From contig NZ_OY782759.1 of NCBI RefSeq assembly GCF_963678195.1, positions 2,542,001 through 2,606,000 of the forward strand: a stretch of 64,000 nucleotides of DNA. Reading direction: 5' to 3'. The position numbers were made by a program, and so were the translations under genes. The notes below the pieces were generated by a model. That model was not told the origin of the DNA. It made no database searches and saw only the letters and a program-made list of their open reading frames with translations. This DNA comes from an uncultured Hyphomonas sp. (GTDB lineage Bacteria > Pseudomonadota > Alphaproteobacteria > Caulobacterales > Hyphomonadaceae). Shown here in pieces: positions 6,625-29,133 of this stretch (within the stretch, counting starts at the first letter, position 1; each line of letters starts with the position of its first letter).

Positions 6625-6865
6625 CGGGCCTGACTGCCCGGCATTAAAGGCCATGCTCTCTGTACGGCTTTCCCGGGCGCGATGGTTTTGCGGCTGAGCA
6701 GCCTCCAAGCACTGGCATCATTTTTTGGGTGAAACCAATCGCGCCAGTTTGTGCCCTGCCCGGCCAATTCACCTCGTGAAGGGTTGAGCCCAGCCCAAAA
6801 CGCCCTAAGGGAGTAGCAGGTGACCAACCGGGCTGAGTGGGCCAGCGCATGCGGAATTGGGGAAC

Positions 6866-8976: not shown

Positions 8977-9432
8977 ATGGCTACTCTCAAGATCAACGGA
9001 CAAGTGATGACGGTTGACGTTGACGAGTCGACCCCTTTGCTCTGGGTCCTGCGGGAACAACTTGGCCTGACCGGGACCAAATATGGCTGCGGAATCGCTG
9101 AGTGCGGCGCCTGCACCATCCATATCGATGGTCAGGCCGTCCGGTCCTGCGTCTATCCCGTGGGCGCGCTCGCCGGCGATGAGGAGATCACAACGATCGA
9201 GGGGCTTTCCGAAGACGGAAGCCACCCGGTCCAGCAAGCCTGGGTCGAACTTGATGTGCCGCAATGCGGCTATTGCCAGCCAGGCATGATCATGGCCGCT
9301 GCAGGCCTGCTGAATGAAAACCCGGACGCAACCGACGAAGACATCGACGCCACCATCACCAATATCTGCCGGTGCGGGACCTTCACACGCGTCCGCAAGG
9401 GCATTCATCTGGCCAAAACCAAGAAAGCCTGA
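8977..9432 (+). CDS. Molybdenum hydroxylase small subunit, two [2Fe-2S] clusters (IorA type)
   Basis: A 151-residue iron-sulfur subunit of the xanthine oxidase family. The plant-ferredoxin cluster is C38, C43, C46 and C58 ('[21 protein letters not shown]' region). The second cluster is C97/C100 ('[10 protein letters not shown]') and C131/C133 ('[13 protein letters not shown]'). It passes electrons from the molybdenum site of the large subunit, encoded immediately downstream, to an external acceptor. There is no FAD subunit, as in isoquinoline 1-oxidoreductase, so a cytochrome c acceptor is likely; a cytochrome c is the third gene. It has no signal peptide and would be co-exported with the Tat-bearing large subunit. 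It is the first gene of the block running to 21924; the Shine-Dalgarno-like stretch ahead of it is weak (AGCAAG). Confidence 0.93.
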
Positions 9433-9446
9433 GGAGGGAACGGTCC

Positions 9447-11633
9447 ATGACGTCTATAACAGGCATCTCCCGCCGCGGATTTATCGTCGGCACCGGCGCC
9501 ACCGGCCTGACAATTGGCATTCTTTCAGCTTGCGCACCGGGCGATAAGGACACGCTGGCGGACGCTGGCCCGCCACCACCGGAAGTGAATGCATGGGTCC
9601 ATATCGGCACCGACGATGTGGTCACAATCCGTATCGCCCGCTCGGAAATGGGTCAGGGCACGCTGACCGGCCTGGCGCAGCTGGTCGCCGAAGAGCTCGA
9701 ATGCGATTGGGACTATGTGAAGACCGAATATCCGACACCGGGTGAGAATCTCGCGCGTGACCGGGTGTGGGGCGACTTCCTGACGGGTGGCAGCCGGGGG
9801 ATCCGCACCAGCCAGGACTATGTACGCGAAGGCGGCGCCGCTGCCCGCATGATGCTCATTCAGGCGGCCGCCAACCGCTGGGGCGTGCCCGTCGAAGAAT
9901 GCTCCGCCGCCAAGAGCATCATCACCCACGATCCGACCGGCAAGACCTTGCGATTCGGCGAAGTCGTAACAGACGCAGCAGAACTGCCCGCACCGGAAAC
10001 TGTCCCGCTGAAGGATCCTTCCGAATGGGAGCTGATCGGCAAGCCGGTGAAGCGGCTGGATACGGTCGACAAAGTCACCGGGAAACAGCTCTACACCACT
10101 GACATGAAGATGGACGGCATGCTGAACGCGGCCGTCAAAGCGGCGCCGAAACGCGGCGGAACGCTGAAATCATTCGATGCAGAGGCTGTCAGCTCCATGC
10201 CCGGGGTGAAAGCGGTGGTGAAGGTCGATGACACCGCCGTCGCCGTAGTGGCCGACTATTGGTGGCAGGCAAAGACGGCGCTCGATGCGCTGCCTATCGA
10301 ATGGGAAGCCGGCGAAGGCTCCGACTTCTCAAGCTCCGCCTTCGAGGCGGACCTGATTGAGGGGCTAACGGCCAGCGAAGCCTTTGTGGGCAACAAGGTG
10401 GGCGATGTCGATGCAGCCTTTGACGGGGCTGCTCAGGTCATTGAAGCCCGCTACAACGCGCCCCATCAGAACCATGCCTGCATGGAACCCATGAACGCCA
10501 TCGCGCTCTGGACCGAAGACAAGTGCGAGGTCTGGTGCCCGACGCAGAATGGCGAAGCCGCACTGGCCGCCACTTCGGAAGCGGCAGACCTGCCGATCCA
10601 GCAATGCGAAGTCTATAAACAGCTTCTGGGCGGTGGTTTTGGGCGCAAAGGTGCCACGGATTACATCTCGCAAACCGTCAAAATCGCAAAGCAGATGCCG
10701 GGGACTCCGATCAAATTGCTCTGGTCCCGTGAAGAAGACATGGAACAAGGCTTCTACCATCCGACCACCAAGGCCCGTTGTCAGGGCGCGCTGGATGCGG
10801 ACGGCAATCTCCTTGGCCTGAAAATCCGGATCTCCGGCCAGTCCATCCTGGCGGGCATCATGCCTCAGGCTCTGGTGGACGGCATGGACATCGTCGTGTT
10901 CCAGGGGCTGCTGCCCTCCGGCATCGACCCTCGCGTCGAAGACCAGACGATGAAGTACACTTTCCCGTCGATTCTGGTGGACCATGCGATGCGCAACCCA
11001 CCTGTCCGGCCGGGTTTCTGGCGCGGTGTGAACGCCAACCAGAATGCCATCTATCTGGAATGCTTCATGGACGAGCTTGCCCACGCCGCAGGCCGCGATC
11101 CGTTGGAGTTCAGGCTTGCGCACCTCAAGGACAGCCCGAAAATGGCGGCCGTCCTGCAGGCGGTGGCTGACAAGTCCGGATGGGGCGCCGATGACGGATT
11201 GTCCCGCGGGCTCTGTGGCTTCTACTCCTTCGGCAGCTATACCGCGGCCTGTGCAGAAGTGACCGTCGACGATGACGGCGTCCTGAAGATGCACCGCATC
11301 GTCGCGGCGACCGACCCCGGCTATGCCGTGAACCCGCAGCAGATCGAAGCACAGGTCTTCGGCTCGTTCGTCTACGGTCTTTCAGCAATGCTGCACGAGG
11401 AAATCACCTTCGAAGACGGCGAGACGCAGCAGAAGAATTTCAACACCTACAATTCGATGCGGATCGCCGAAATGCCAGACGTTGAAACCCTGGTCATGCC
11501 GTCGGGCGGATTCTGGGGCGGTGTGGGCGAACCCACAATCGCCGCCGCACCGCCAGCCGTGCTGAACGCAATCTTCGCTGCGACCGGAAAGCGGATCCGG
11601 CAATTGCCCATCAAGGACCAGGCGCTGAGATAG
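9447..11633 (+). CDS. Tat-exported molybdopterin-binding large subunit of a xanthine dehydrogenase-family enzyme (IorB type)
   Basis: A 728-residue catalytic subunit that holds the molybdenum cofactor. The start at 9447 follows a GAGGAGG site and gives a Tat signal, 'SRRGFIVGTGATGLTIG', ending in a lipobox-like SAC. Diagnostic motifs are 'RIARSEMGQGTLTGLAQLVA', 'LLGGGFGRKGATDYISQTV' (cofactor-binding GGGFGRK) and, near the end, 'GGFWGGVGEPTIAAAPPAVL'. The Glu there (about residue 695) is the invariant base of molybdenum hydroxylases. These enzymes hydroxylate aldehydes or N-heterocycles with water-derived oxygen. The substrate here is unknown. Fused position with Sox genes and a complete cofactor pathway is unusual and suggests a periplasmic role in sulfur-linked oxidation. 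Confidence 0.92.
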   Translation: MTSITGISRRGFIVGTGATGLTIGILSACAPGDKDTLADAGPPPPEVNAWVHIGTDDVVTIRIARSEMGQGTLTGLAQLVAEELECDWDYVKTEYPTPGENLARDRVWGDFLTGGSRGIRTSQDYVREGGAAARMMLIQAAANRWGVPVEECSAAKSIITHDPTGKTLRFGEVVTDAAELPAPETVPLKDPSEWELIGKPVKRLDTVDKVTGKQLYTTDMKMDGMLNAAVKAAPKRGGTLKSFDAEAVSSMPGVKAVVKVDDTAVAVVADYWWQAKTALDALPIEWEAGEGSDFSSSAFEADLIEGLTASEAFVGNKVGDVDAAFDGAAQVIEARYNAPHQNHACMEPMNAIALWTEDKCEVWCPTQNGEAALAATSEAADLPIQQCEVYKQLLGGGFGRKGATDYISQTVKIAKQMPGTPIKLLWSREEDMEQGFYHPTTKARCQGALDADGNLLGLKIRISGQSILAGIMPQALVDGMDIVVFQGLLPSGIDPRVEDQTMKYTFPSILVDHAMRNPPVRPGFWRGVNANQNAIYLECFMDELAHAAGRDPLEFRLAHLKDSPKMAAVLQAVADKSGWGADDGLSRGLCGFYSFGSYTAACAEVTVDDDGVLKMHRIVAATDPGYAVNPQQIEAQVFGSFVYGLSAMLHEEITFEDGETQQKNFNTYNSMRIAEMPDVETLVMPSGGFWGGVGEPTIAAAPPAVLNAIFAATGKRIRQLPIKDQALR

Positions 11634-11635
11634 AA

Positions 11636-11980
11636 ATGGTCAAGCCGTCAGGAAAGCTGACCGCCTTCGCTTTGCTCACGCTTCTTGTCTGCGCCTGTGA
11701 GTCGGCGCCGGCCGGAACGCAGACTGAAGACGCCTCCCGCGAGGCTGCCGATCTCGGCGCGCCTGCCATCCTAGCGCTCTCCTGCTCCGGCTGTCACGGG
11801 CCGGACGGCGGTGCGATTGCCAGTCTCGACGGACGGACGTCCGACCAAATCCGCCTGTCCCTGCTCCGGTACAAGAACGACAACAACGGCGGCAGCGTCA
11901 TGCACCGCATGATGCGCGGCTATAGCGAAGCAGATATCGACGCCATCAGCATCTATCTTGCGGAAACGGTTGCGGAATGA
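11636..11980 (+). CDS. Class I cytochrome c lipoprotein, FccA-like
   Basis: A 114-residue cytochrome with an N-terminal lipoprotein-type signal (Cys21) and one haem site, C50-S-G-C-H54. The likely axial Met is Met89 in 'GGSVMHRMMRGYSEADIDAI'. The pattern 'IASLDGRTSDQIRLSLLRYK' then 'MxRMMRGYS' and an acidic C-terminal helix resembles the cytochrome subunit of flavocytochrome c sulfide dehydrogenase and SoxE. It starts 3 bases after the hydroxylase large subunit and overlaps the flavoprotein gene by 4 bases. It could take electrons from either the molybdenum enzyme or the flavoprotein, or both. Confidence 0.85.
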   Translation: MVKPSGKLTAFALLTLLVCACESAPAGTQTEDASREAADLGAPAILALSCSGCHGPDGGAIASLDGRTSDQIRLSLLRYKNDNNGGSVMHRMMRGYSEADIDAISIYLAETVAE

Positions 11981-13254
11981 CGGACGCTTTCCTGAACAGG
12001 CGCGATCTCCTGCTGTCGCTCTCCGGACTGACAGCCCTTGCGGCGTTGCCCTTTCCGGCCGCAGCACAAGTCCGCGCCCGCCTTGTGATTGTCGGAGGCG
12101 GCTTCGGCGGTGCCACGGCGGCCCGCTTCCTGAAGCGCACCATGCCGGCCGCATCGGTGACACTGATAGGACCGAACACGGATTACTATGCCTGCCCCTT
12201 CAGCAATCTGGTAATCGCTGGCCTGCGTGACCTTTCAGAGCAACGCTTCGGCTATGACACGCTGAAAGCCGAAGGTATCGACGTCGTTCCGGATATGGCC
12301 GTCGATGTAGACCCCGTCGCTCGGACAGTTTCCGTGAAATCCGGGGACACTTTCTCCTACGACAAACTCATCCTGTCGCCGGGAATCGATTTCCGCTGGG
12401 GCGCGATTGAAGGCTATGACCAGGCCGCTGCCGAACTGATGCCGCACGCCTGGAAGGCCGGTCCTCAGACCGTGTTGCTTCGCAAACAGCTTGAAGCCAT
12501 GGAAGATGGCGGCCTTGTTGTCATCTCTGTCCCGCCTGCCCCTTTCCGCTGCCCGCCGGGCCCTTATGAGCGCGCCAGCCTGATTGCCAACTATCTGAAG
12601 GCCCACAAGCCGAACTCCAGGCTTCTCATTCTGGACGCACAGGACAAGTTTTCGAAGCAACCCTTGTTCGAACAGGCCTGGGCTGATCTTTACCCGGACA
12701 TCATTGAGCGATACGGCGCAGATGAATTCGGCCGCGTCGTTTCGGTCGCGCCCACATCCGGCATTCTGTCGACAGAGTTCGAAGATGTCCGCGCCGATGT
12801 CGCCAACGTCATTCCACCCCAGCAAGCTGGCGCAATCGCCCACAAGGCCGGCGTCGCTGACAGGACGGGCTGGTGCCCGATCGATCCCTTGTCGTTCAGC
12901 TCGACGCTGCAGCCTGACATTCACGTCATCGGCGACGCGACGATTGCCTCGCCCATGCCGAAGTCTGCCTTCTCGGCCAATCTACAGGCCAAGCTGTGCG
13001 CCTTGCAGATTGCGGCAATCCTCTCAGGCCGGACACCTGAACCGACAACCCTGACCAATACCTGCTATTCCTACCTTTCCGGCGACACCGCCGTTTCCAT
13101 CACCGGTGTCTACACAAATGCGGATGGCGCGCTGCAATCGGTAGCCGGATCCGGAGGCCTCAGCCCGTTGATGGCTGACGACATTGTCAGGCGGAATGAA
13201 GCACTGCAGGCCAGAACCTGGTTCCACACGATTACAGGGCAGACCTTTGGATGA
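11977..13254 (+). CDS. Flavocytochrome c sulfide dehydrogenase-like flavoprotein (FccB/SoxF type)
   Basis: A 425-residue exported FAD protein. The Tat-like signal is 'NRRDLLLSLSGLTALAAL'. The FAD-binding dinucleotide fold is 'ARLVIVGGGFGGATAARFLK'. Cys73 in 'DYYACPFSNLVIAG' sits where FccB links FAD covalently. Cys192 ('FRCPPGPYERA') and Cys300 ('TGWCPIDP') correspond to the redox-active cysteine pair of the sulfide dehydrogenase. 'CYSYLSGDTAVSITGVY' lies in the conserved C-terminal region. It probably oxidises sulfide or a persulfide and hands electrons to the cytochrome encoded by the 4-base-overlapping gene upstream. It also overlaps soxX by 4 bases, so translation is coupled. Confidence 0.88.
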   Translation: MTDAFLNRRDLLLSLSGLTALAALPFPAAAQVRARLVIVGGGFGGATAARFLKRTMPAASVTLIGPNTDYYACPFSNLVIAGLRDLSEQRFGYDTLKAEGIDVVPDMAVDVDPVARTVSVKSGDTFSYDKLILSPGIDFRWGAIEGYDQAAAELMPHAWKAGPQTVLLRKQLEAMEDGGLVVISVPPAPFRCPPGPYERASLIANYLKAHKPNSRLLILDAQDKFSKQPLFEQAWADLYPDIIERYGADEFGRVVSVAPTSGILSTEFEDVRADVANVIPPQQAGAIAHKAGVADRTGWCPIDPLSFSSTLQPDIHVIGDATIASPMPKSAFSANLQAKLCALQIAAILSGRTPEPTTLTNTCYSYLSGDTAVSITGVYTNADGALQSVAGSGGLSPLMADDIVRRNEALQARTWFHTITGQTFG

Positions 13255-13706
13255 GACCGGCCGCTGCAGCCGCCTTGCTGTGCCTCCTTGTCCCGTCTGC
13301 CTGCAGCCAGGCTTCGAGCGACCGGCTGGCCAGTCCGGTCACGATTGTCGGAGACGCCGTTCCTGCCCCCCTTGAAGGCCGTCAGGGTGACGCACAGCGC
13401 GGGCAGCAGGTCTTCACATCGCGGGACAGCGGGCATTGTCTGCTTTGCCACCAGCTGGCCAGCCTCGAGGCAGAGTTTCAGGGCAATGTCGGGCCGCCCC
13501 TGACCGGTATCGGCGCCCGGCTGGACGCCGGCCAGATCCGCTACCGCATCATTGACGCCCAAACCATTTGGCCGGACACTGTGATGCCATCCTATTATCG
13601 GACAGACGGGCTCCGCCAGGTCGGCGAAGCGTACAGGGGCGCCCCGGCGCTCAGCGCGCAGGAGATTGAAGACCTGGTCGCTTTTTTGGAAACGCAGACA
13701 GACTGA
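13251..13706 (+). CDS. soxX: Sulfur oxidation cytochrome SoxX
   Basis: A 151-residue monohaem cytochrome c with a signal peptide. The haem site is C63-L-L-C-H67. The SoxX hallmark 'GNVGPPLTGIGARLDAGQIR' follows, then 'VMPSYYRTDGLRQV', with Met112 as likely axial ligand. In the Sox pathway SoxX pairs with SoxA to join thiosulfate or another sulfur donor to the carrier SoxY by forming a cysteine S-thiosulfonate. Start and stop overlap the neighbours by 4 and 1 bases. Its partner soxA lies three genes downstream, after soxY and soxZ. Confidence 0.93.
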   Translation: MRPAAAAALLCLLVPSACSQASSDRLASPVTIVGDAVPAPLEGRQGDAQRGQQVFTSRDSGHCLLCHQLASLEAEFQGNVGPPLTGIGARLDAGQIRYRIIDAQTIWPDTVMPSYYRTDGLRQVGEAYRGAPALSAQEIEDLVAFLETQTD

Positions 13707-14185
13707 TGCAGACAGGCAATGAGAAACAGACAAGGCGGTTCCTGACACGCCGCGATGTGCTTGCATCGACCGCTGCGAGCGCCGTTGCGGCTTTCCTTGC
13801 CCCAGCCGCCTTCGCGACGCCGGAAGATGCGGATCAGGCCATCCGCGAGCTTTTCGGCGACCGCCCCATCAATGAAGGCCGGGTTACCGTCACCCTTCCG
13901 CCGATTGCAGAGAACGGCAATTCGGTGCCGGTGGGGGTCACCGTCACCAGCCCCATGAGCGAAGACGATTATGTGAAGCAGATCGTCATCCTGTCTCCGC
14001 GAAATCCCATCGCAACCATCGCCCGGTTTCAGTTAGGTCCGCACGCCGGCCGCGCCGACATCTCTACCCGCGTGCGAATGGCGGGGACCCAGACCCTGCG
14101 GGTCGTTGCCGAGATGAGCGATGGCACGCTGTGGTCAGGGACAGGCAGCACCTATGTCACGCTCGCAGCGTGCATCATCGGCTGA
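13706..14185 (+). CDS. soxY: Sulfur carrier subunit SoxY with a variant C-terminal arm
   Basis: A 159-residue protein with a Tat signal ('TRRDVLASTAASAVAAFL') and the SoxY fold: 'EGRVTVTLPPIAENGNSVPV', 'VKQIVILSPRNPIATIARFQ' and 'ISTRVRMAGTQTLRVVAEMS'. SoxY carries sulfur intermediates on a cysteine at the end of a flexible C-terminal arm. Here the protein ends Leu-Ala-Ala-Cys-Ile-Ile-Gly, with one Cys (156) four residues from the end. The classic arm is Gly-Gly-Cys-Gly-Gly with Cys third from the end. The carrier cysteine is therefore kept but the arm is bulkier and one residue longer. soxZ follows 16 bases downstream. Confidence 0.92.
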   Translation: MQTGNEKQTRRFLTRRDVLASTAASAVAAFLAPAAFATPEDADQAIRELFGDRPINEGRVTVTLPPIAENGNSVPVGVTVTSPMSEDDYVKQIVILSPRNPIATIARFQLGPHAGRADISTRVRMAGTQTLRVVAEMSDGTLWSGTGSTYVTLAACIIG

Positions 14186-14201
14186 GGGAGGCTGCGCAGA
14201 C

Positions 14202-14516
14202 ATGATCCGCATATCCGCACCCGACACGGCCACCGCCGGCGAAATCATCGAACTGAAGGCGATGATCCAGCACCCGATGGAAACGGGCTACCGCCGCGAC
14301 TCCAAGGGCGAAACCATCCCGCGGAACATTATCAAGCAGTTCCGCTGCACTTATGACGGCAATATTATCTTTGAAGGCGAGTTCTTTCCCGGCATCGCAG
14401 CCAACCCTTTCCTCACCTTCCACGCCCGCGCGACCCGCACGGCCATGATCGAATTCAGCTGGACAGACCAGCATGGCGAGCGCTGGAGCGAAGAACGGCT
14501 GTTGACGGTGTCATGA
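14202..14516 (+). CDS. soxZ: Sulfur carrier partner SoxZ
   Basis: A 104-residue beta-sandwich protein that dimerises with SoxY in the periplasm. Characteristic text is 'ELKAMIQHPMETGYRRDSKG', 'IPRNIIKQFRCTYDGNIIFE' and 'GIAANPFLTFHARATRTAMI'. It has no signal peptide, as expected, because SoxZ is co-exported with Tat-targeted SoxY. The ATG at 14202 is preceded by GGGAGG; a longer reading from 14121 would overlap soxY out of frame and is rejected. It overlaps soxA by 4 bases. Confidence 0.95.
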   Translation: MIRISAPDTATAGEIIELKAMIQHPMETGYRRDSKGETIPRNIIKQFRCTYDGNIIFEGEFFPGIAANPFLTFHARATRTAMIEFSWTDQHGERWSEERLLTVS

Positions 14517-15301
14517 GGCAGCTTTGCCTTCTCGCGTTTTTCCTTGCGGCCTGTAGCGGACAGAAGGCGGAATACGCTCCGCAGAGCCAGCTCACGCCGG
14601 AGACCATCCAATCCGGCTACGCCTTCCTCCAGCCGGAGACCCAGGCCTTGCAGGATGACGATTTCGCCAATCCCGGTTTCCTGTGGGTGGACAAGGGCGA
14701 GACCTTGTTCAACCAAATCCCGGAGACCGGCGCGCCTGCCTGTGCTTCCTGCCATGCAACTGACAGTCGCCCGCTCTCAGGCGTCGCGGCGCACTATCCG
14801 GCGGTGGATGAGGAAACAGGGAAACTGATGAACATCGAAGCACGCATCAATGTCTGCCGCGATCGTTATCAGAACCTTGCCCCGCTCGACTATGAAAGCG
14901 ATGCGCTTCTGGGGCTGACCGCCTATGTCGCAAGTCTCGCGCGAGGCGTGCCCATATCCGTGAACATCGATGGTCCGGCCAAAGATTATTACGAGGCAGG
15001 TGAAGACTATTTCTTCCTTCGCAAGGGGCAGTTCAACCTCGCCTGCAGCCAATGCCACAATGACAATTGGGGAAAGAAGCTGCGCGGCGACACAATCAGC
15101 CAGGGCCATGGCAACGCCTTTCCAGCCTACCGCATGGAATGGCAGACCTTCGGCTCGCTTCACCGCCGCTTGCGCGATTGCGATTCCGGCATCCGTGCTG
15201 AGCCACTGGACTATGGATCCGAGACCTATACAGCTGTGGAACTCTACCTCGCAAAACGGGCGGGGGGGCTAGCCATGGAATCCCCGGGACTCAGACGGTG
15301 A
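14513..15301 (+). CDS. soxA: Dihaem sulfur oxidation cytochrome SoxA
   Basis: A 262-residue exported cytochrome with a lipoprotein-like signal ('CLLAFFLAACSG'). Two haem sites are present, C77-A-S-C-H81 and C178-S-Q-C-H182, placing it in the dihaem SoxA group. Cys223 in 'HRRLRDCDSGIRAEP' is the conserved cysteine that becomes the persulfidated haem ligand at the SoxAX active site. 'NIEARINVCRDRYQ' is another family mark. With SoxX it forms the enzyme that loads sulfur on SoxYZ. The C-terminus overlaps the GTG start of the ModE-like gene by 4 bases. Confidence 0.94.
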   Translation: MRQLCLLAFFLAACSGQKAEYAPQSQLTPETIQSGYAFLQPETQALQDDDFANPGFLWVDKGETLFNQIPETGAPACASCHATDSRPLSGVAAHYPAVDEETGKLMNIEARINVCRDRYQNLAPLDYESDALLGLTAYVASLARGVPISVNIDGPAKDYYEAGEDYFFLRKGQFNLACSQCHNDNWGKKLRGDTISQGHGNAFPAYRMEWQTFGSLHRRLRDCDSGIRAEPLDYGSETYTAVELYLAKRAGGLAMESPGLRR

Positions 15302-15666
15302 CAGCGAAGAACAAACCCGGCCTCAGCATCCGGATAGACCTGCCCGGCGGCGGGCGCTTCGGCCCGGGCAAGGCCGCCCTGCTCGACGCGATTGCGGAAC
15401 TCGGTTCTCTCAACAAAGCCGCCAGTCAGCTGGGCATGTCTTATCCGAGGGCGCGCAAACTGGTCGAGGAAATGAACCGGGACTTCCAAACGCCTCTCGT
15501 TCTTTCCAGCCAGGGCGGCGCGGACGGCGGCGGCTCCCGGCTATCCGATGCAGGCCAGGAGTTGCGGGATCTGTACCACCAGCTGTGCAACCGGTCGCTC
15601 GCACACAATGAAACGCTACTCGCGCGGATCGGCCAGGGAACAAATCGGAGACCAGTGCCGAAATAG
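15298..15666 (+). CDS. ModE-like winged-helix DNA-binding protein without a molybdate domain
   Basis: A 122-residue protein resembling only the N-terminal DNA-binding half of ModE: 'FGPGKAALLDAIAELGSLNK', 'AASQLGMSYPRARKLVEEMN', then 'SRLSDAGQELRDLYHQL'. In ModE this domain binds operators of molybdenum genes, while separate C-terminal domains bind molybdate. Those domains are missing. The start is a GTG overlapping the soxA stop. Just downstream, 15677-15695 holds the palindromic stretch ATTATAAACGACCATTTATAAT, a possible self-operator. It probably controls this molybdenum/Sox block; how it senses molybdenum, if it does, is unknown. Confidence 0.82.
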   Translation: MTAKNKPGLSIRIDLPGGGRFGPGKAALLDAIAELGSLNKAASQLGMSYPRARKLVEEMNRDFQTPLVLSSQGGADGGGSRLSDAGQELRDLYHQLCNRSLAHNETLLARIGQGTNRRPVPK

Positions 15667-15674
15667 GGCTGTCG

Positions 15675-15696
15675 CATTATAAACGACCATTTATAA
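15675..15696. promoter_or_regulatory. AT-rich palindrome, possible operator
   Basis: Inverted repeat ATTATAAA (arm 15675-15682) and TTTATAAT (arm 15689-15696) separated by six bases. It sits in the only non-coding gap of any size within this part of the block (15667-15695). It lies between the ModE-like gene and the XdhC-MocA gene, and its last bases reach the latter's start. It stands out in this GC-rich DNA. Its position suggests an operator or an internal promoter for the cofactor genes. Assignment to a particular regulator is inference. Confidence 0.4.
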
Positions 15697-17207
15697 TGCC
15701 TGATATGGCCGGATCCGCTCCCCTCTATGCTGAACATCCGCAGGATGTGCTTGGCCAGTGGCTTGCCTGGCGGCAAGCAGGGCCTGTTGCGCTTGTCGTG
15801 GTCGCCGCGACAGAAGGCGGCAGCGTCCGCTCGCCGGGCGCATTGATGGCCGTGTCGGCATCGGGCCAGAAGTGCGGCTATATTTCCGGCGGTTGCGTGG
15901 ACGCAGATGTCGCCCTGCAGGCCCGGCAATCCATCGAAGAGGGCAAGCCCCGGTCGCTCCGCTATGGCACCGGGTCGCCGTTCATCGACATGCCCCTGCC
16001 CTGCGGCGGCGCGATCGACATCATGATCCTGCCGGATGCGGATGCTACAGAAATTCAACGCTGCCACGACGCCTTGTCTGCGCGCCAGCGGGTTTATCTC
16101 TCTCTGCCCGGTCTGGACGCACCCTTCTGCTACACACCAAAGCTCCGCATCCGGATCGCCGGGCGCGGTGCGGATGCCCTCGCTCTGGCACGTCTCGTCC
16201 GGGCCAGCGGCTATGGTCTTTCGCTTCAATTGCGCGATGGGGAAGACGTCGACGAGGCACGGCGGGACGGGTTCATGGATGCCGTCGCCTTGCAATCGCC
16301 GGACAGTCTGCCGGACCTCTCAGATGATCCCTGGACGGCCTTCATCCTGATGTTCCACGATCCGGACTGGGAGGTAGCCCTGCTGAAACAGGCGCTCGCC
16401 GGGAAAGCGTTCTATGTCGGCGCAGTCGGCAGCCGCCGGACACAGGAGCGCCGGCGGGCACGCCTCGCCGAGGAAGGTCTCCCCACCACCAGCATAGACC
16501 GTGTTCGAGGCCCCATCGGGCTGATCCCCTCCATGAGGGACGCGTCCATGCTCGCCGTCTCCGCACTTGCCGAAATCATAGCGGCCTACAAGGAGACACA
16601 GCACAATCCGTTCGCGGAAACCGCGGTTCTCCTCCTCGCCGCGGGGCAATCTGCGCGCTTCTCCAGCGGAGACAAGCTTCAGGCTGACCTGGGCGGACGG
16701 CCCATTCTTGGCCATGCTGCAAGCCTGCTTCAGAACACGCCGGCCGCAGCGCGGATTGCGGTCATCGGGCCCGGTCAGGAAGGCCGCGGGCGCCTGCTGA
16801 AGACCAAAGACTGGCAGATCGTGGAGAACCCGGACAGCGCAGCCGGGCAATCGACCAGTCTGAAGGCCGGTATCGCCGCCATCCGCGAAATGCCGGGAAT
16901 CGAGCGGGTCCTCATCCTTCTGGCCGACATGCCTTTTGTCTCCGAGGCGCATCTCCTTGCATTGAGCAGCGCCATGGCGCCTGAAACAAATGCCGTCATG
17001 TCAAGCATGGGAGACGTCCTGTGTCCGCCGGCAATGTTCTCGGCCCGCACATTTGATCAGTTATCGAACGTCAGCGGCGACGCAGGCGCGAAAAAGGTTT
17101 TCAACGCGCTGGACAACACAGAAAGGGTATCCATTCCCGATAGCGAAGCCATCGATATCGACACGATTGAAGACCTGGCCCGCGCCGCCAGCACCCAGCC
17201 CGCATAG
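15696..17207 (+). CDS. XdhC/CoxI maturation factor fused to MocA/MobA-like nucleotidyltransferase
   Basis: A 503-residue fusion of two cofactor-handling proteins. Residues 1-110 are the XdhC_CoxI domain ('EGGSVRSPGALMAVSASG', 'YISGGCVDADVALQ'). Residues 145-280 are the XdhC C-terminal Rossmann part ('FYVGAVGSRRTQERRRARLA'). Residues 305-495 are a MobA-like NTP transferase ('VLLLAAGQSARFSSGDKLQA', 'LILLADMPFVSEAHLL'). XdhC proteins receive and mature the molybdenum cofactor for xanthine-oxidase-family enzymes. MocA adds CMP to form molybdopterin cytosine dinucleotide. This fits the IorAB-type enzyme upstream rather than a sulfite-oxidase-type SoxC. Confidence 0.9.
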   Translation: MPDMAGSAPLYAEHPQDVLGQWLAWRQAGPVALVVVAATEGGSVRSPGALMAVSASGQKCGYISGGCVDADVALQARQSIEEGKPRSLRYGTGSPFIDMPLPCGGAIDIMILPDADATEIQRCHDALSARQRVYLSLPGLDAPFCYTPKLRIRIAGRGADALALARLVRASGYGLSLQLRDGEDVDEARRDGFMDAVALQSPDSLPDLSDDPWTAFILMFHDPDWEVALLKQALAGKAFYVGAVGSRRTQERRRARLAEEGLPTTSIDRVRGPIGLIPSMRDASMLAVSALAEIIAAYKETQHNPFAETAVLLLAAGQSARFSSGDKLQADLGGRPILGHAASLLQNTPAAARIAVIGPGQEGRGRLLKTKDWQIVENPDSAAGQSTSLKAGIAAIREMPGIERVLILLADMPFVSEAHLLALSSAMAPETNAVMSSMGDVLCPPAMFSARTFDQLSNVSGDAGAKKVFNALDNTERVSIPDSEAIDIDTIEDLARAASTQPA

Positions 17208-17218
17208 GAAGGTATATT

Positions 17219-17980
17219 TTGGTCTACCTTCTTCCCCTCATCTTCTTCGTGACAGCGGCCCTCTACGCCAGCGTCGGGTTCGGCGGCGGCTCAACCTATA
17301 ATGCCGTCCTGATCCTTTCCGGTGCGGACTTCCGGATCGTTCCGTTGATCGCATTGGCGTGCAACATCCTTGTCGTCTCCGGCAACACGATCCGGTACGC
17401 GATGACAGGCAATCTCGACTGGCGGGCCCTTCTGCCTGCGCTCGCCCTATCCGTTCCGCTCGCCTGGCTTGGCGGACGCGTGCCGGTCAGTGAGTTTGTA
17501 TTTTCCGCCCTGCTTGGGATCACACTCCTTCTGACCGGCCTGTCGATGCTGTTCCAGCGCCGCTGGAAACGCCCGGCGGATGCGCCTGTCGCTTCGCGTG
17601 CGCTCGTCCTGATGCCGGTGGGCGCGGCGACGGGTTTCCTGGCCGGTCTCGTCGGGATTGGCGGCGGCATCTTTCTCGCACCGGTTCTCTACTGGATCCG
17701 GTGGAGCCATGAGAAAGCCATTGCCGCGGCGTGCAGCCTGTTTATCCTGCTGAACTCCATGTCTGGCCTCGCCGGGCAGGCCGCCAAGCACAGCAGCGTC
17801 GGAACGCTGCAGCTGGCCAAACCTTACCTGCCGCTTCTTCCCGCGGTGCTGATCGGGGGCTGGCTCGGCAACCGCTTTGGTGTTCTGAAAATGCAGCCTG
17901 ATCATCTTCGTCAGGGAACAGCCATTCTTATTCTGATCGTGGCAATCCGGCTGCTTTATAAAGTGTGGAGGACGACCTAG
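17219..17980 (+). CDS. TauE/SafE family exporter (sulfite or organosulfonate type)
   Basis: A 253-residue membrane protein with about eight hydrophobic helices. It starts 'MVYLLPLIFFVTAALYASVG' and has the paired TauE signature 'GFGGGSTYNAVLILSG' and 'GLVGIGGGIFLAPVLYW'. Members export sulfite, sulfoacetate or related anions, or move other small substrates. The start is TTG at 17219, six bases after GGAAGG. Its place between Sox/molybdenum genes and cofactor genes suggests it carries a sulfur product such as sulfite across the inner membrane (inference). Confidence 0.88.
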   Translation: MVYLLPLIFFVTAALYASVGFGGGSTYNAVLILSGADFRIVPLIALACNILVVSGNTIRYAMTGNLDWRALLPALALSVPLAWLGGRVPVSEFVFSALLGITLLLTGLSMLFQRRWKRPADAPVASRALVLMPVGAATGFLAGLVGIGGGIFLAPVLYWIRWSHEKAIAAACSLFILLNSMSGLAGQAAKHSSVGTLQLAKPYLPLLPAVLIGGWLGNRFGVLKMQPDHLRQGTAILILIVAIRLLYKVWRTT

Positions 17981-17984
17981 CCCA

Positions 17985-19004
17985 ATGACATCGCCCTCCC
18001 CGCCCCCGTTGCTCGACAAGTTTGGCCGACAGGTCACCTATCTCCGGCTATCGGTCACAGACCGGTGCGATCTGCGCTGCAAATACTGCATGGCCGAAGC
18101 CATGACATTCCTTCCGAAAAAAGAGCTTCTGACGCTCGAAGAACTGGAATTCGTGACACAGGCATTCATCCGCCGCGGAGTCCGCAAGGTCCGGATCACA
18201 GGCGGAGAACCGCTTGTCCGGAAAGGCATCATGACTCTCTTCAGCCAGCTCGGCGCACAGCTCGGGCAAGGCCTTGAAGAGTTGACCCTGACGACCAATG
18301 CGACCCACCTCTCACAATATGCAGGCGATCTCGCCCGGGCCGGTGTGCACAAGGTGAATGTCTCCCTCGATACGCTGGATCCGGCGCGCTTTGTCGATAT
18401 CACGCGCCGAGACCAACTGGGTCAGGTTCTGGATGGCATCGCTGCGGCCAAAGCGGCAGGCCTGAAAGTGAAGATCAATACGGTCGCGCTCAAACACCAG
18501 AACATGGATGAAATCCCGGACATCATCGCCTGGGCCCATGGCGAAGGGCACGATATCTCCCTGATCGAAGTCATGCCGCTTGGCGACACCGGAGAAGACC
18601 GGTTCGACCAGTATGTTCCGCTCGATATGATCCAGCAGCAGCTTGAGCAGCGCTGGACCCTGAAACAGGAAACGGAGCGGGATCCGCTGGCCGGCCCGTC
18701 GCGCTATTTCCGCATCCGGGAAACCGGCGGCCGGGTTGGATTTATCACGCCACTGACGAACAATTTCTGCGCCGGATGCAACCGGGTCCGCGTCACCTGC
18801 ACCGGGCGAATCTACATGTGCCTCGGTCAGAACGATCATATCGACCTGCGCGCACCACTTCGGGAATCTGACAATCCGGCAAGAGCCCTGGACGAGGCAC
18901 TGGACACAGCATTGTTTGCCAAACCGGAAAAGCACGACTTCTCAATCCGCTCCCCTGGCGAGGCGCCGACCCTGCCGCGGCACATGTCTGTGACAGGAGG
19001 TTAG
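17985..19004 (+). CDS. moaA: GTP 3',8-cyclase MoaA
   Basis: A 339-residue radical SAM enzyme, first step of molybdenum cofactor synthesis (GTP to 3',8-cyclo-H2GTP). The SAM cluster is C28-x3-C32-x2-C35 ('TDRCDLRCKYCMAEAM'). 'VRITGGEPLVRKG' is the SAM-binding GGEP motif. The second, GTP-binding 4Fe-4S cluster is formed by 'FCAGCNRVRVTCTGRIYMC'. The protein ends in the Gly-Gly needed for activity ('MSVTGG'). It is followed by moaD after two bases. Confidence 0.97.
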   Translation: MTSPSPPPLLDKFGRQVTYLRLSVTDRCDLRCKYCMAEAMTFLPKKELLTLEELEFVTQAFIRRGVRKVRITGGEPLVRKGIMTLFSQLGAQLGQGLEELTLTTNATHLSQYAGDLARAGVHKVNVSLDTLDPARFVDITRRDQLGQVLDGIAAAKAAGLKVKINTVALKHQNMDEIPDIIAWAHGEGHDISLIEVMPLGDTGEDRFDQYVPLDMIQQQLEQRWTLKQETERDPLAGPSRYFRIRETGGRVGFITPLTNNFCAGCNRVRVTCTGRIYMCLGQNDHIDLRAPLRESDNPARALDEALDTALFAKPEKHDFSIRSPGEAPTLPRHMSVTGG

Positions 19005-19006
19005 CG

Positions 19007-19255
19007 ATGGCGCGCATCCTCTATTTCGGAAAACTATCCAGCATTTACGGAGAGCTGTCGGAGACAGCAGAGCTTCCCGCCTCCGTCTCCGACACCACGG
19101 CGCTCCGTTCCTGGATCGACCAGACCCGGGGATTTGACGGCGCGCTTTTGCACCCGAGCGTCCGGATCGCGGTAAACAATGAGATAGTCGACGATCCCTC
19201 GCCGGTATCTGATGCGGACGAAATCGCCTTCATGCCCCCGGTCGGAGGTGGCTGA
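19007..19255 (+). CDS. moaD: Molybdopterin synthase sulfur carrier subunit MoaD
   Basis: An 82-residue ubiquitin-like protein: 'ARILYFGKLSSIYGELSETA' at the start, 'VRIAVNNEIVDDPSPVSDAD', then 'EIAFMPPVGGG' with the terminal Gly-Gly. In the active form the last Gly carries a thiocarboxylate that supplies the dithiolene sulfurs. It pairs with MoaE encoded two bases downstream. Confidence 0.95.
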   Translation: MARILYFGKLSSIYGELSETAELPASVSDTTALRSWIDQTRGFDGALLHPSVRIAVNNEIVDDPSPVSDADEIAFMPPVGGG

Positions 19256-19257
19256 AC

Positions 19258-19719
19258 ATGATCCGGGTGACAGACCAGCCCTTCCGGATTTCCGATGCCG
19301 CCGCTGAATTTGAAGCGCAAGCGGCTGGTGCCGGCGCGATCGTCACCTTTTCCGGCCTCGTCCGCCCTCAGGCGGAAGGCGAAGAGGTCAGCACCCTCCA
19401 CCTGCAGGCCTATTCCCCCATGACGGAGAACGGCATCCGCAAAGCCGTCACCCGGGCGCAGGACAAGTGGCCGCTGACGGCCGTTCAGATCATACATCGG
19501 ATCGGCGACATGTCGCCCGGCGACGCAATTGTCTTTGTGGCCACCGCCTCCGCCCATCGCCGCGCGGCGTTTGAGGCAGCCGATTTCCTGATGGACTATC
19601 TGAAGACCGACGCAGTTTTCTGGAAGAAAGAAGTCACGCCATCGGGCGCGCACTGGATTGAACCGCGTGCGGAAGACTACCGCGACCGGGAAAGATGGAA
19701 TGAAGAAAAAGGAAGCTGA
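19258..19719 (+). CDS. moaE: Molybdopterin synthase catalytic subunit MoaE
   Basis: A 153-residue enzyme subunit that converts cyclic pyranopterin monophosphate to molybdopterin using MoaD thiocarboxylate. Family motifs: 'GAIVTFSGLVRPQAEGEEVS', 'LQAYSPMTENGIRKAV', 'IHRIGDMSPGDAIVFVATAS', 'HRRAAFEAADFLMDYLKTDA' and 'FWKKEVTPSGAHWIEP'. The last two segments hold the catalytic lysines. Position directly after moaD is standard. Confidence 0.96.
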   Translation: MIRVTDQPFRISDAAAEFEAQAAGAGAIVTFSGLVRPQAEGEEVSTLHLQAYSPMTENGIRKAVTRAQDKWPLTAVQIIHRIGDMSPGDAIVFVATASAHRRAAFEAADFLMDYLKTDAVFWKKEVTPSGAHWIEPRAEDYRDRERWNEEKGS

Positions 19720-19724
19720 CCCTC

Positions 19725-20261
19725 ATGCATGGCATCAATGAAAGCCTCGAATTCAAGCCGGTGCGGATTGCTGTCCTCGTCGTCAGCGACACCCGCACGC
19801 TCGACACCGATACATCAGGCGCCACCCTGGTGCAGCGGCTTGAAGCGGCCGGCCACGTTCTGGCAGACCGGAAAATCCTGCCGGACGACAAAGCCACGAT
19901 CCGGGCGCAGGTCTCCGCCTGGATCGCCGATCCGGAAGTCGACGTCGTGATCTCCAGCGGCGGCACAGGGCTGACTGGCCGGGATGTGACACCGGAAGCC
20001 ATCACGCCGCTGTTCGACAAGACGATCGAAGGCTTTTCCGTGATCTTCCATCAGGTCAGTTTCCAGAGCGTTGGCCTGTCGACGCTCCAGTCCCGCGCCG
20101 TTGCGGGGCTCGCTTCCGGTACATTCATCTTCTGCCTGCCCGGCTCCACCGGCGCGGTGAAGGATGGCTGGGACAAGGTCATCTCCTACCAGCTCGACAG
20201 CCGCCACAAGCCCTGCAATCTGGTGGAGCTGATGCCGCGCCTCATGGAGCATGAAGCATGA
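19725..20261 (+). CDS. moaB: Molybdenum cofactor biosynthesis protein MoaB
   Basis: A 178-residue MogA/MoaB-fold protein that binds molybdopterin and is thought to adenylylate it before metal insertion. Visible marks are '[20 protein letters not shown]', '[20 protein letters not shown]' and '[20 protein letters not shown]'. It overlaps moaC by 4 bases. No mogA is present in the window, so MoaB likely takes that step here. Confidence 0.93.
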
Positions 20262-20737
20262 GCGAGCTCACCCATATTGGCCCCGACGGGCATGCCCGGA
20301 TGGTCGACATCGGGGCCAAGCAGGTGACCGAGCGGGTGGCCGTTGCCCGTGGGCGGATCACCATGTCTGCCGCCACAAGGTCGCTGGCCCTGAACCGCGA
20401 GACAAAGAAAGGCGATCCGATCGCCATCGCCGAACTCGCCGGCATCATGGCCGCCAAGAAGACGGCAGACCTGATCCCGCTTTGCCATCCCTTGCCGCTG
20501 ACGAATGTCGAAGTCAGGATCGGCGCTGCAGAGCCGGACGCGCTTGAAGCCACGGCGACCGTCCGCACCACCGGGAAGACCGGCGTGGAGATGGAGGCCC
20601 TCACGGCGGTCTCGGCGGCCTGTCTCACGCTCTACGACATGCTGAAGGCCGTGGACAAAGCCATGGTCATTTCCGGCATCGAACTCCTCAGCAAAACCGG
20701 CGGCAAGTCCGGCGATTATCACAAGGCCAGCGAATGA
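20258..20737 (+). CDS. moaC: Cyclic pyranopterin monophosphate synthase MoaC
   Basis: A 159-residue enzyme completing the conversion of the MoaA product into cyclic pyranopterin monophosphate. Motifs: '[20 protein letters not shown]', '[20 protein letters not shown]', and '[20 protein letters not shown]' then '[10 protein letters not shown]', holding the active-site Glu-Met-Glu and Lys. It overlaps both neighbours by 4 bases. Confidence 0.96.
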
Positions 20738-21924
20738 GCAGCCTCATCAGTGTTGACGATGCCCTCCGGGCGCTTGCCCCGCATGCCCTGGATGCGGGCG
20801 AGGAGACGATTGGCACAGGCGAAGCGCTGGGCCGCATACTGTCGCGCGATGTCCTGGCCGGAACCACAGCTCCGCCAGCGGATGTTTCTGCGATGGACGG
20901 TTATGCCGTCCGCCTGGCCGACACGACAGAAGCTGGCAGCCAGCTGCATGTGACCGGCGAGATCCCTGCGGGCACATTGCCGGCCCATGCGATCGGCCCC
21001 GGCGAAGCGATGCGCATTTTCACCGGCGCGCCATTGCCGGAGGGCGCAGATCACATCCTTATCCAGGAAGAGGCAGACCGCTCGGGCGACGAGATCCGGG
21101 TGACGGTCCCGCAAACGGCGCACCAGCATATCCGCAAGGCCGGGCGGGATTTTTCGGCGGACGACAGTCTCGTTTCGGCCGGCACCTGTCTCACCCCGGC
21201 GGACCTTGGCCTGGCCGCTGCGGGCAACAATGCCACCGTGACGGTGCGCCGCCGGCCCATCGTCGCCATCCTCCCCGGCGGAGATGAATTGCTGCCGCCC
21301 GGCAGTGCGCTTTCTCCGGGCAAGATCATCGACTCCAATTCCACAGCGCTTGCCGCGCTGGTGCGCAGCTGGGGCGGAGAGGCGCTCACGCCCGGCATTG
21401 CCGGGGATTCCGTGGCCGCCATCCGGGCGGTGGTCGATGCCGTAAAAGACGCAGATCTGATCCTGCCGGTGGGCGGCGCCTCTGTCGGCGACTATGACTA
21501 TATGAAAGCCGCCTTTGCCGAGGCCGGTGCGGAGATCCTGTTTTCCGGCATTGCCGTTCGCCCCGGAAAGCCGACCTGGTTTGCCCGGCTGGGCCAGCAA
21601 CGCGTTCTGGGCCTTCCCGGAAACCCCGCGTCCGCTTTTGTTTGCGCGCAACTATTCCTCCGAGCTCTGATGGTGAAGACGGCTGGTCCGGCAAACGTCT
21701 TCAAAGCGGCACTCGAAACCGGCCTGCCAAAGGCGGGGTTCCGGGAGACTTATCTACGTGCCGTCTCCCGGCCGCAGGATGGCCAGACGAAGGTCGCACC
21801 GCTTGCCGATCAGGACAGTTCGCTTTTACGTCCCTTGCAGACAGCGAACTGTCTGATCCGGCGCATGCCGAACGCCCCGGCCTGCGAGGCGGGTGCGCCG
21901 GTGGAATGCGTGAAACTGGATTGA
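20734..21924 (+). CDS. moeA: Molybdopterin molybdotransferase MoeA
   Basis: A 396-residue enzyme that inserts molybdate into adenylylated molybdopterin. Motifs: '[17 protein letters not shown]', '[20 protein letters not shown]', '[14 protein letters not shown]', '[20 protein letters not shown]' and '[16 protein letters not shown]'. It is the last gene of the rightward block begun by the hydroxylase small subunit at 8977. With MoaA, D, E, B, C and MocA the block encodes nearly the whole cofactor route; no moeB, mobA or molybdate transporter is in view. Confidence 0.95.
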
Positions 21925-25640: not shown

Positions 25641-25840
25641 TTGAACGCGTTACCCGGCTTCAGGCCAAGCGCCTTGAAAATCAGCGCGGCCGGGCAGAAG
25701 CCCGTGAACGCCGCCTGGAACATGTTCAGCCCGGCAAACGCCGTCAGCAGGAACCAGTAAGGCGATACGAAATAGCCAAGCGCCAGGCTCAGCGAAACAA
25801 CGACGCCAGCGAAAGCAAAAACAGCACGATCGACATTCAT
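25637..25840 (-). CDS. YgaP-like (DUF2892) inner-membrane protein
   Basis: A 67-residue protein with two membrane helices ('VFAFAGVVVSLSLALGYFV', 'WFLLTAFAGLNMFQAAFTGF') and the family ending 'FCPAALIFKALGLKPG'. In Escherichia coli the same domain is fused to a rhodanese in YgaP. Here a rhodanese is encoded separately in the divergent operon. It likely binds or passes sulfane sulfur or thiocyanate at the membrane (inference from the family). The ATG at 25840 follows AGAGGA; an earlier start at 25870 is less supported. Confidence 0.88.
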   Translation of the reverse strand: MNVDRAVFAFAGVVVSLSLALGYFVSPYWFLLTAFAGLNMFQAAFTGFCPAALIFKALGLKPGNAFK

Positions 25841-25890
25841 CTTGAACATCCTCTGAGTTGCATCAGGCACTCAGCCTGAATGGGTTGGGA

Positions 25891-26349: not shown

Positions 26350-26367
26350 GACGGACTCCTCTGCGGA

Positions 26368-27639: not shown

Positions 27640-27797
27640 GGCCCTACTCCCTGTGGGATTAATTCTTTGTATGCGTTATCTCTTATATTCGTGTTTTATA
27701 AAATGCGCATTATGTCGCATGTTTAATCTGCCCGCGCGACTGTATTCCGGATGAAAAGAACAGGCGTGCGCGCATGCGCAAAGAAAAGGAGTCCTCT
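27640..27797. promoter_or_regulatory. Divergent promoter/operator region of the sulfide-response locus
   Basis: A 158-base AT-rich gap between the divergent SQR and rhodanese genes. It contains the perfect palindrome TTTTATAAAA (27694-27703) and an overlapping inverted repeat ATGCG-N8-CGCAT (27703-27720), plus another ATGCG at 27671. Such elements fit binding by the dimeric ArsR-type repressor encoded at the end of the rightward operon. Exact promoter boxes cannot be assigned with confidence. Confidence 0.5.
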
Positions 27798-29127: not shown

Positions 29128-29133
29128 CCGCGC

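What the first reader, a model, noticed from the sequence alone, without database searches (positions are those of the whole stretch)
8977..21924. Molybdenum hydroxylase joined to a SoxXYZA module without SoxB or SoxCD
One unbroken rightward block encodes an IorAB-type exported molybdenum hydroxylase, an FccAB-like pair, SoxX, SoxY, SoxZ, SoxA, a ModE-like protein, an XdhC-MocA fusion, a TauE exporter and the Moa/MoeA cofactor enzymes. Overlaps of 1-4 bases link most genes from 11636 to 15301. Canonical Sox clusters need SoxB to release sulfate and usually SoxCD, a sulfite-oxidase-type molybdenum enzyme. Here neither is present, and the molybdenum enzyme is from a different family. I infer either that the hydroxylase acts on an organosulfur or heterocyclic substrate and passes sulfur to SoxYZ, or that it shares the cytochromes for electrons. 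A soxB elsewhere in the genome is not excluded.
Basis: partly seen in the sequence, partly recalled or inferred. Interest (0 to 1): 0.82.

Follow-up and report, generated by a model that had tools for sequence, protein, structure and literature searches.

The report
Sox carrier paired with molybdenum hydroxylase
A bacterium of the genus Hyphomonas carries an operon in which part of the sulfur-oxidising Sox machinery is paired with a molybdenum enzyme instead of its usual partners, and the same unit recurs in many other proteobacteria, which points to an undescribed oxidation pathway in the periplasm.

Summary
The block is real: IorA, IorB, an FccA-like cytochrome, FccB, SoxX, a SoxY paralogue, SoxZ, SoxA, ModE-N, XdhC-MocA, TauE and Moa/MoeA run rightward from 8977 to 21924. 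The genome (one 3.67-Mb contig) has no match to SoxB or to the sulfite-oxidase family that includes SoxC; IorB is the only molybdoenzyme I found in it. The link is conserved: 100 fetched loci hold IorB beside these Sox genes on one strand, none with SoxB in the locus. The SoxY is a paralogue whose carrier arm ends AACIIG, not GGCGG. In a class sample, 27 of 32 AC-arm loci lie beside IorB and 0 beside SoxB; 34 of 45 GGC-arm loci lie beside SoxB and 0 beside IorB. SoxA of SoxB loci and of IorB loci fall on opposite sides of one supported branch. The catalytic cysteines of SoxA and FccB are kept. Best reading: a dedicated periplasmic pathway in which SoxXA loads an organic sulfur compound onto the altered arm, IorAB oxidises its carbon part and FccAB, where present, clears sulfane sulfur. 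Substrate and direct IorB-SoxY contact are inferred. The SoxY subfamily is already named by NCBI; I found no description of the pathway.

The parts
8977..9432 (+). IorA-type small subunit, two [2Fe-2S] domains, no signal peptide seen
   Evidence: PF00111 and PF01799; xanthine/aldehyde-type small-subunit models
9447..11633 (+). IorB-type molybdopterin-binding large subunit, twin-arginine signal with LSAC (possible lipoprotein)
   Evidence: PF02738, PF20256; nearest solved sequence 8gy3, aldehyde dehydrogenase large subunit, E 1.6e-83; start read
11636..11980 (+). FccA-like monohaem cytochrome c (CSGCH)
   Evidence: PF00034, sequence
11977..13254 (+). FccB, flavocytochrome c sulfide dehydrogenase flavoprotein; Cys192 and Cys363 invariant
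   Evidence: PF21706, PF09242; both cysteines in 87 of 87 aligned rows
13251..13706 (+). SoxX cytochrome c
   Evidence: TIGR04485 73.5 bits, cut-off 61
13706..14185 (+). SoxY paralogue, arm LAACIIG, single Cys156
   Evidence: TIGR04487 166 bits, cut-off 172; TIGR04488 108 bits, cut-off 125
14202..14516 (+). SoxZ
   Evidence: TIGR04490 90.9 bits, cut-off 76; start codon
14513..15301 (+). SoxA dihaem cytochrome c (CASCH, CSQCH) with haem-ligand position Cys223
   Evidence: TIGR04484 220 bits, cut-off 110; alignment to SoxA 1h31 and 2c1d
15298..15666 (+). ModE-like DNA-binding domain only
   Evidence: TIGR00637 62 bits, cut-off 98.5
15696..17207 (+). XdhC-MocA fusion (Mo sulfuration and cytidylyl transfer for the hydroxylase, by family)
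   Evidence: PF02625, PF13478, PF12804
17219..17980 (+). TauE/SafE-type membrane exporter (TTG start, or GTG at 17249)
   Evidence: PF01925
17985..19004 (+). MoaA, the only one in the genome
   Evidence: PF06463, PF04055; single match in genome
19007..19255 (+). MoaD
   Evidence: PF02597
19258..19719 (+). MoaE
   Evidence: PF02391
19725..20261 (+). MoaB/MogA-type protein
   Evidence: PF00994
20258..20737 (+). MoaC
   Evidence: PF01967
20734..21924 (+). MoeA
   Evidence: PF03453, PF00994, PF03454

Best explanation
A dedicated periplasmic oxidation system. Shown here: IorAB, SoxX, an AC-arm SoxY, SoxZ and SoxA (often with FccAB) form one conserved gene unit that does not include SoxB and occurs in many genomes without SoxB; in this genome IorB is the only molybdoenzyme found and the operon holds the only MoaA. 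Inferred: SoxXA uses its cysteine-ligated haem to couple an organic sulfur compound (a thiol or thione) to Cys156 of the AACIIG arm as a disulfide; the arm, which no longer has the GGCGG form used with SoxB, presents this cargo to IorAB; IorAB hydroxylates the carbon part, giving a carbonyl or carboxyl product and leaving sulfane sulfur on SoxY; FccAB, where present, oxidises the sulfane or released sulfide. The three enzymes pass electrons to c-type cytochromes. The fused XdhC-MocA and the Moa/MoeA genes supply IorAB with its cofactor.
For: Arm type parallels partner: 27 of 32 AC-arm loci beside IorB and 0 of 32 beside SoxB; 0 of 45 GGC-arm loci beside IorB and 34 of 45 beside SoxB (Fisher p 5e-16 and 2e-12, not corrected for kinship). 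Of the five AC-arm loci without IorB, three genomes hold a 57-73% identical IorB elsewhere or at a contig end. In 100 loci with IorB the module genes are on one strand, 64 in the exact order IorA-IorB-FccB-SoxX-Y-Z-A. SoxB over cut-off in only 6 of 30 module genomes of the class sample and 0 of 9 Hyphomonas and Henriciella genomes. SoxA tree separates SoxB-linked rows (29) from the rest, support 96/96. Lineage-specific residues: SoxY A155 in 101 of 101 against G in 34 of 34, five of eight such SoxY positions in the last ten residues; all four in SoxA lie between its second haem and just past Cys223; IorB H438, N529, N531, W690, T697. SoxA haem-ligand Cys kept in 95 of 95, FccB cysteines in 87 of 87. 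No sulfite-oxidase family protein, no second MoCoBD_2 hydroxylase, PF00384 only NuoG, no MOSC.
Against: No substrate evidence. Members of this enzyme family normally attack sp2 carbon of aldehydes or N-heterocycles and the active site is deep (recalled), so action on a protein-bound cargo would be unusual. FccB is missing from 16 of 100 loci, 13 of them in the class sample. Closest IorB relatives L201 and L202 have no Sox genes nearby, so the enzyme type can work without the carrier. A 20-kb Methylobacterium locus (L133) has AC-arm SoxXYZA without IorB, not followed up. Two loci with arm GACS (L191, L193) have neither IorB nor SoxB nearby and no module-type IorB in the genome. Hyphomonadaceae lack the acidic residue after the arm Cys that 89 of 111 AC arms have. 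No structure of a complex was computed.
Confidence: 0.45

Rival explanations
1. Sequential pathway without contact: IorAB hydroxylates a free sulfur-containing heterocycle or aldehyde; the sulfur freed as sulfide, thiol or thiosulfate is then taken by FccAB and by SoxXA-SoxYZ. The arm changed because SoxB was no longer a partner.
For: IorB is closest among solved proteins to an aldehyde dehydrogenase large subunit, 8gy3; no other recurrent neighbour was found in 27 module loci, so the unit looks self-contained; FccB redox cysteines are intact.
Against: The new arm is as strongly kept as the old one (A155 in 101 of 101), which loss of SoxB alone would not explain. FccAB is absent from 16 of 100 loci.
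Confidence: 0.25
2. Shared electron acceptor only: IorAB oxidises a sulfur-free aldehyde or heterocycle and is grouped with SoxXA and FccAB because all reduce the same cytochrome c.
For: The redox enzymes in the unit are cytochrome c linked by family (recalled); L201 and L202 show IorAB without Sox.
Against: Does not explain the match of SoxY arm type to the presence of IorB, nor why SoxYZ, which carries no electrons, is kept in the unit; none of the 34 SoxB-linked SoxY loci of the class set carries IorB.
Confidence: 0.12
3. Maintenance or protection of the exported enzyme: SoxXYZA handles sulfur species around the Mo-sulfido centre (re-sulfuration or protection), as has been suggested for SoxYZ-like proteins beside PQQ alcohol dehydrogenases.
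For: A fused SoxYZ-like carrier sits beside PQQ dehydrogenases and maturation or protection roles are discussed for it (PMC12997753, section 15); the window SoxY and SoxZ also match that model, TIGR04557, weakly (77.7 and 49.4 bits, cut-off 140).
Against: XdhC, the usual sulfuration factor, is already in the operon; SoxXA and FccAB are oxidative catalysts with active-site cysteines kept, more than a protector needs.
Confidence: 0.1
4. Thiosulfate or sulfide oxidation by a shortened Sox system, with SoxB replaced by something unrecognised and IorAB incidental.
For: SoxX, SoxZ and SoxA pass the curated thiosulfate-pathway cut-offs.
Against: No SoxB match in the genome, IorB recurrent in the unit, arm unlike that of the 34 SoxB-linked SoxY compared (34 of 34 with G at the place of A155).
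Confidence: 0.08

Closest known systems
Sox thiosulfate-oxidation system (SoxXA, SoxYZ, SoxB, SoxCD)
   Same: SoxX, SoxZ and SoxA pass curated cut-offs; SoxA keeps both CxxCH motifs and the haem-ligand Cys
   Different: No SoxB and no SoxC-family protein in the genome; SoxY is a paralogue with another arm; IorAB in the unit
TIGR04487 SoxY-related AACIE arm protein (NCBIfam)
   Same: Full-length match, same arm class; NCBI uses this name for SoxY of the same gene order on a Methylobacterium plasmid, locus L243
   Different: Window protein scores 166, under the 172 cut-off, and ends AACIIG without the acidic residue; I could not read the family's description, and the name gives no function
Periplasmic IorAB / aldehyde dehydrogenase (8gy3) type molybdenum hydroxylases
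   Same: Domain plan, Tat signal, and E695 (GVGEP), Q367 and R526 conserved in both groups (roles of these residues recalled)
   Different: Module IorBs group apart from most IorBs without Sox and differ in loops at 438, 524-531 and 690-698
Flavocytochrome c sulfide dehydrogenase FccAB / SoxEF
   Same: PF21706 and PF09242 domains, both cysteines kept
   Different: FccB is part of the unit in 84 of 100 loci only
Quinoprotein dehydrogenase-associated SoxYZ-like carrier with SoxH
   Same: A SoxYZ-type carrier tied to a periplasmic alcohol or aldehyde oxidising enzyme (PMC12997753 section 15)
   Different: There SoxY and SoxZ are fused, the enzyme is a PQQ protein, and SoxH and a rhodanese protein are partners; TIGR04557 is far under cut-off here
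Incomplete SoxYZ plus flavocytochrome c in SAR324 (PMC4782131, passages)
   Same: FccB beside SoxYZ without other Sox subunits is reported there as a possible new mechanism
   Different: Isoquinoline 1-oxidoreductase is mentioned elsewhere in that paper; the passages seen do not link it to the Sox genes

Membership tests
Sox thiosulfate-oxidising system | SoxXA with cysteine-ligated active haem | tested here: met
   SoxA TIGR04484 and SoxX TIGR04485 over cut-off; Cys223 aligned to the Cys of SoxA 1h31/2c1d; 95 of 95 SoxA in IorB loci (90 by pattern, 5 by eye). By sequence only
Sox thiosulfate-oxidising system | SoxY with GGCGG carrier arm | tested here: not met
   Ends AACIIG; TIGR04488 108 bits, cut-off 125
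Sox thiosulfate-oxidising system | SoxB | tested here: not met
   No match in complete genome
Sox thiosulfate-oxidising system | SoxCD (only in some Sox systems) | tested here: not met
   No PF00174 match in genome
TIGR04487 SoxY-related AACIE arm protein | Score over curated cut-off | tested here: not met
   166.4 against 172; nearest family all the same, E 3.4e-49
TIGR04487 SoxY-related AACIE arm protein | AAC arm motif | tested here: met
   LAACIIG; the A-C pair is invariant in the 26-row alignment
Xanthine-oxidase-family molybdenum hydroxylase, IorAB type | Small subunit with two [2Fe-2S] domains plus Mo subunit, no FAD subunit, Tat signal on the large one | tested here: met
Xanthine-oxidase-family molybdenum hydroxylase, IorAB type | Isoquinoline or aldehyde oxidation | not testable with these tools
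   Needs an enzyme assay
Flavocytochrome c sulfide dehydrogenase | FccB domains and two redox cysteines | tested here: met
   87 of 87 rows; that these two are the redox pair is recalled
Quinoprotein-associated SoxYZ-like system | Fused SoxYZ over TIGR04557 cut-off | tested here: not met
   77.7 and 49.4 bits on separate proteins, cut-off 140

The most novel reading that the evidence does not exclude
IorAB is a carrier-dependent molybdenum hydroxylase: it acts on an organic group held as a disulfide on the AC-type SoxY arm, taking the place of SoxB and SoxCD in a second, old branch of the Sox system that oxidises organosulfur compounds in the periplasm of many heterotrophic proteobacteria.
Probability: 0.28. 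Interest if true: 0.88.

Novelty: new variant of a known kind. Interest (0 to 1): 0.7.

Why it matters
Sox genes are widely read as thiosulfate oxidation. A branch of SoxXYZA with its own carrier arm and a different partner enzyme means that soxXYZA without soxB may not be a broken thiosulfate pathway but another pathway, with an unknown substrate. In Hyphomonas the question is unusually clean: IorB is the only molybdoenzyme found, and the operon carries the only MoaA, so molybdenum need and this pathway can be tested together. If the arm-bound reading holds, it would be new chemistry for molybdenum hydroxylases and an organosulfur sink in marine and soil heterotrophs.

Tried and rejected
Recurrent extra neighbours that might give the substrate: clustering of neighbouring open frames in 27 module loci gave no family in four or more loci besides IorA, IorB, FccB, SoxX, SoxY, SoxZ and SoxA (overlapping frames were dropped, so small genes can be missed).

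SoxB in unnoticed form: none at E 0.001 in the genome. TsdA: the only SoxA/TsdA-type cytochrome in the genome is SoxA (none of the 14 control genomes rings for this model). Other molybdoenzymes; PF02738 alone and the tungsten aldehyde ferredoxin family were not searched.

Recent import: G+C of the block (0.62) is like that of the window (0.61). Promoter and terminator scan: no promoter-like site listed ahead of IorA on the + strand; not informative.

Literature: ten searches of the open PMC library showed no paper that, from listing or passages, describes IorAB with Sox; most subscription papers are not held, so this is weak evidence. Papers: PMC4782131, PMC2864759, PMC10708946, PMC4423706 and PMC12423496 seen as passages; PMC12997753 passages and section 15; the others as listings.

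Rows dropped or set by hand. Class table: 80 of the 82 places with 92 bits or more; left out were the window's own place and a 3-kb contig of G071 (arm PAC). IorB tree: near-duplicates L036, L046, L076, L087, L088, L092 and odd-numbered loci L121 to L153 left out; L218, L219, L221 skipped by the script; L102 and L124 were tagged 'mod' by mistake (hits of 76 and 37 bits on the other strand); L203 is a very long branch, probably a wrongly picked frame; quick method. SoxA tree: L036, L038, L046 left out, only 11 named loci admitted, L034, L048, L058 labelled IorB-linked by hand because their contigs end or IorAB lies elsewhere; the bootstrap had not settled. The 511 relatives may include true SoxY, so they are not a count of modules. 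Some records may occur in both locus sets.

Full report
What is there. IorB begins at ATG 9447, with a twin-arginine motif and LSAC, so it is probably exported and perhaps a lipoprotein. SoxX, SoxZ and SoxA pass NCBI's curated cut-offs; SoxY does not: it scores 108 bits to true SoxY (cut-off 125) and 166 to TIGR04487, 'SoxY-related AACIE arm protein' (cut-off 172). Its arm ends LAACIIG with a single cysteine, Cys156. SoxA has both CxxCH motifs and Cys223 at the place of the cysteine that ligates the active haem; a cysteine-based mechanism for this family is argued from TsdA in PMC4423706 (passages), which also notes that evidence on SoxXA itself is disputed.

Organism. The nearest named record is Hyphomonas jannaschiana VP2: 99% over SoxY and 97% over 711 columns of IorB. 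I infer the genus Hyphomonas.

The genome. It is one contig of 3,672,159 bases, completeness 100. It has no match to SoxB, none to PF00174, the family of SoxC and sulfite oxidases, none to MOSC, one SoxA/TsdA-type cytochrome (SoxA), one gene with MoCoBD_2 (IorB), one MoaA (in the operon) and one PF00384 hit, which is NuoG. So IorB is the only molybdoenzyme I found, and the Moco genes beside it probably serve it alone.

Conservation. In a sample of 385 genomes of the class, TIGR04487 gave 98 genomes with a match, 20 over cut-off; three other genomes of the window's own order have none. I read the surroundings of 80 of the 82 places with 92 bits or more. AC-type arms: 32, of which 27 have IorB within 9 kb and 0 have SoxB. 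GGC arms: 45, of which 34 have SoxB and 0 have IorB. Three read as 'other' by my pattern: L185 and L189 have IorB and a long tail after GAC; L067 is a SoxYZ fusion beside FccAB. Of the five AC-arm loci without IorB, three come from genomes with a module-like IorB elsewhere: G091 (73% identity, with IorA, another contig), G093 (65%, IorA-IorB-FccB on another contig) and G127 (57%); the other two, with arm GACS, have none. Of 80 loci from named genomes, 71 have IorB. Together these are 100 loci with IorB; the module genes are on one strand in all 100, 64 have the exact order IorA-IorB-FccB-SoxX-SoxY-SoxZ-SoxA, 84 have FccB and none has SoxB in the stretch. Record titles include alpha-, beta- and gammaproteobacteria; one copy is on a Methylobacterium plasmid, where NCBI uses the AACIE name.

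SoxB at genome level. It is over cut-off in 6 of 30 module genomes of the class sample (29 IorB-linked loci plus the window); in five of the six it lies in another locus beside a GGC-arm SoxY, and in the sixth, G361, it lies elsewhere beside a SoxY hit whose arm I did not read. It is over cut-off in 14 of 36 named genomes searched (two of 38 not held; one of the 36, L133, has no IorB in its locus), and in 0 of 9 Hyphomonas and Henriciella genomes. The module therefore does not depend on SoxB, but occurs together with a separate SoxB in Bradyrhizobium and some Methylobacterium.

Lineages. On a SoxA tree of 71 rows the 29 SoxB-linked rows are one side of a branch (96/96); the other side holds the 40 IorB-linked rows and two with neither. 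On an IorB tree of 105 rows, 74 of 76 module rows fall in one 78-row group (support 99) with two second copies and two IorBs without Sox genes, L201 and L202; the other two module rows are tagging errors. This reads as an old association, not a recent break of a thiosulfate operon.

Where the differences lie. Between IorB-linked and SoxB-linked SoxY, eight positions differ sharply and five are in the last ten residues; A155 is in 101 of 101 against G in 34 of 34. All four SoxA positions lie between residues 190 and 226, the domain of the second haem and Cys223; SoxX has five, SoxZ one. Of 111 AC arms, 89 have an acidic residue within three of the cysteine; the window does not. In IorB, residues shared by at least 90% of 74 module rows and at most 15% of 18 others include H438, N517, F524, N529, N531, W690 and T697, close in sequence to the conserved R526 and E695; L201 and L202 share some (N517, F524, W690) and not others (H438, N529, N531, T697). 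That these loops line the substrate pocket is recalled from the family, not computed.

How it most likely works. The conserved cysteines of SoxA (95 of 95) and FccB (87 of 87) suggest that thiol-disulfide coupling and sulfide or sulfane oxidation are kept. What is missing is hydrolysis by SoxB and sulfane oxidation by SoxCD. What is added is a carbon-hydroxylating enzyme. The simplest joint reading is that the cargo is an organic sulfur compound: SoxXA couples it to the arm, IorAB oxidises the carbon, FccAB clears the sulfur. Gene unity and a specialised arm are shown; cargo, order of steps and contact are inferred. Rivals are a sequential pathway without contact, shared cytochromes, maintenance of the Mo centre, and a shortened thiosulfate system.

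Known or new. The parts belong to known families, and NCBI has named the SoxY subfamily. In ten searches of the open library I found no paper on the IorAB-Sox unit. The nearest ideas in print that I saw are the SoxYZ-like carrier beside PQQ dehydrogenases (PMC12997753, section 15) and FccB with SoxYZ in SAR324 (PMC4782131, passages).

Noticed in passing
window 22926-24224 (-): Class-V PLP enzyme with a twin-arginine-like start, best NCBIfam match PvdN at 130 bits (cut-off 650); not found in the other fetched module loci.
   Followed up: partly
window 25891-27639 (-): SQR-like flavoprotein (89 bits to a type III SQR model, cut-off 525) next to a thioredoxin-2-like gene, a few kb from the sulfur operon.
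   Followed up: partly
window 24354-32427: Outer-membrane efflux protein (24354-25640, -), HlyD and RND pump genes (28093-32427, +) in the flank.
   Followed up: no
window 6857-7882 (+): AraC-type regulator, best match QhpR at 215 bits (cut-off 250), kept upstream of the module in the closest Hyphomonas loci (L051, L075-L077); possible regulator.
   Followed up: partly
L185 8870-16246 (-): Two IorAB pairs in tandem with a SoxY whose arm cysteine is followed by 36 more residues; L189 has a tail of 22.
   Followed up: partly
L191 and L193: SoxYZ with arm ending GACS (L191 also SoxXA), with neither SoxB nor IorB nearby: a possible third type.
   Followed up: partly
L133: Methylobacterium sp. WSM2598: AC-arm SoxXYZA in a 20-kb stretch without IorAB.
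   Followed up: no
L067 3455-4327 (-): SoxY-SoxZ fusion with GGC arm beside FccAB, no SoxB nearby.
   Followed up: no
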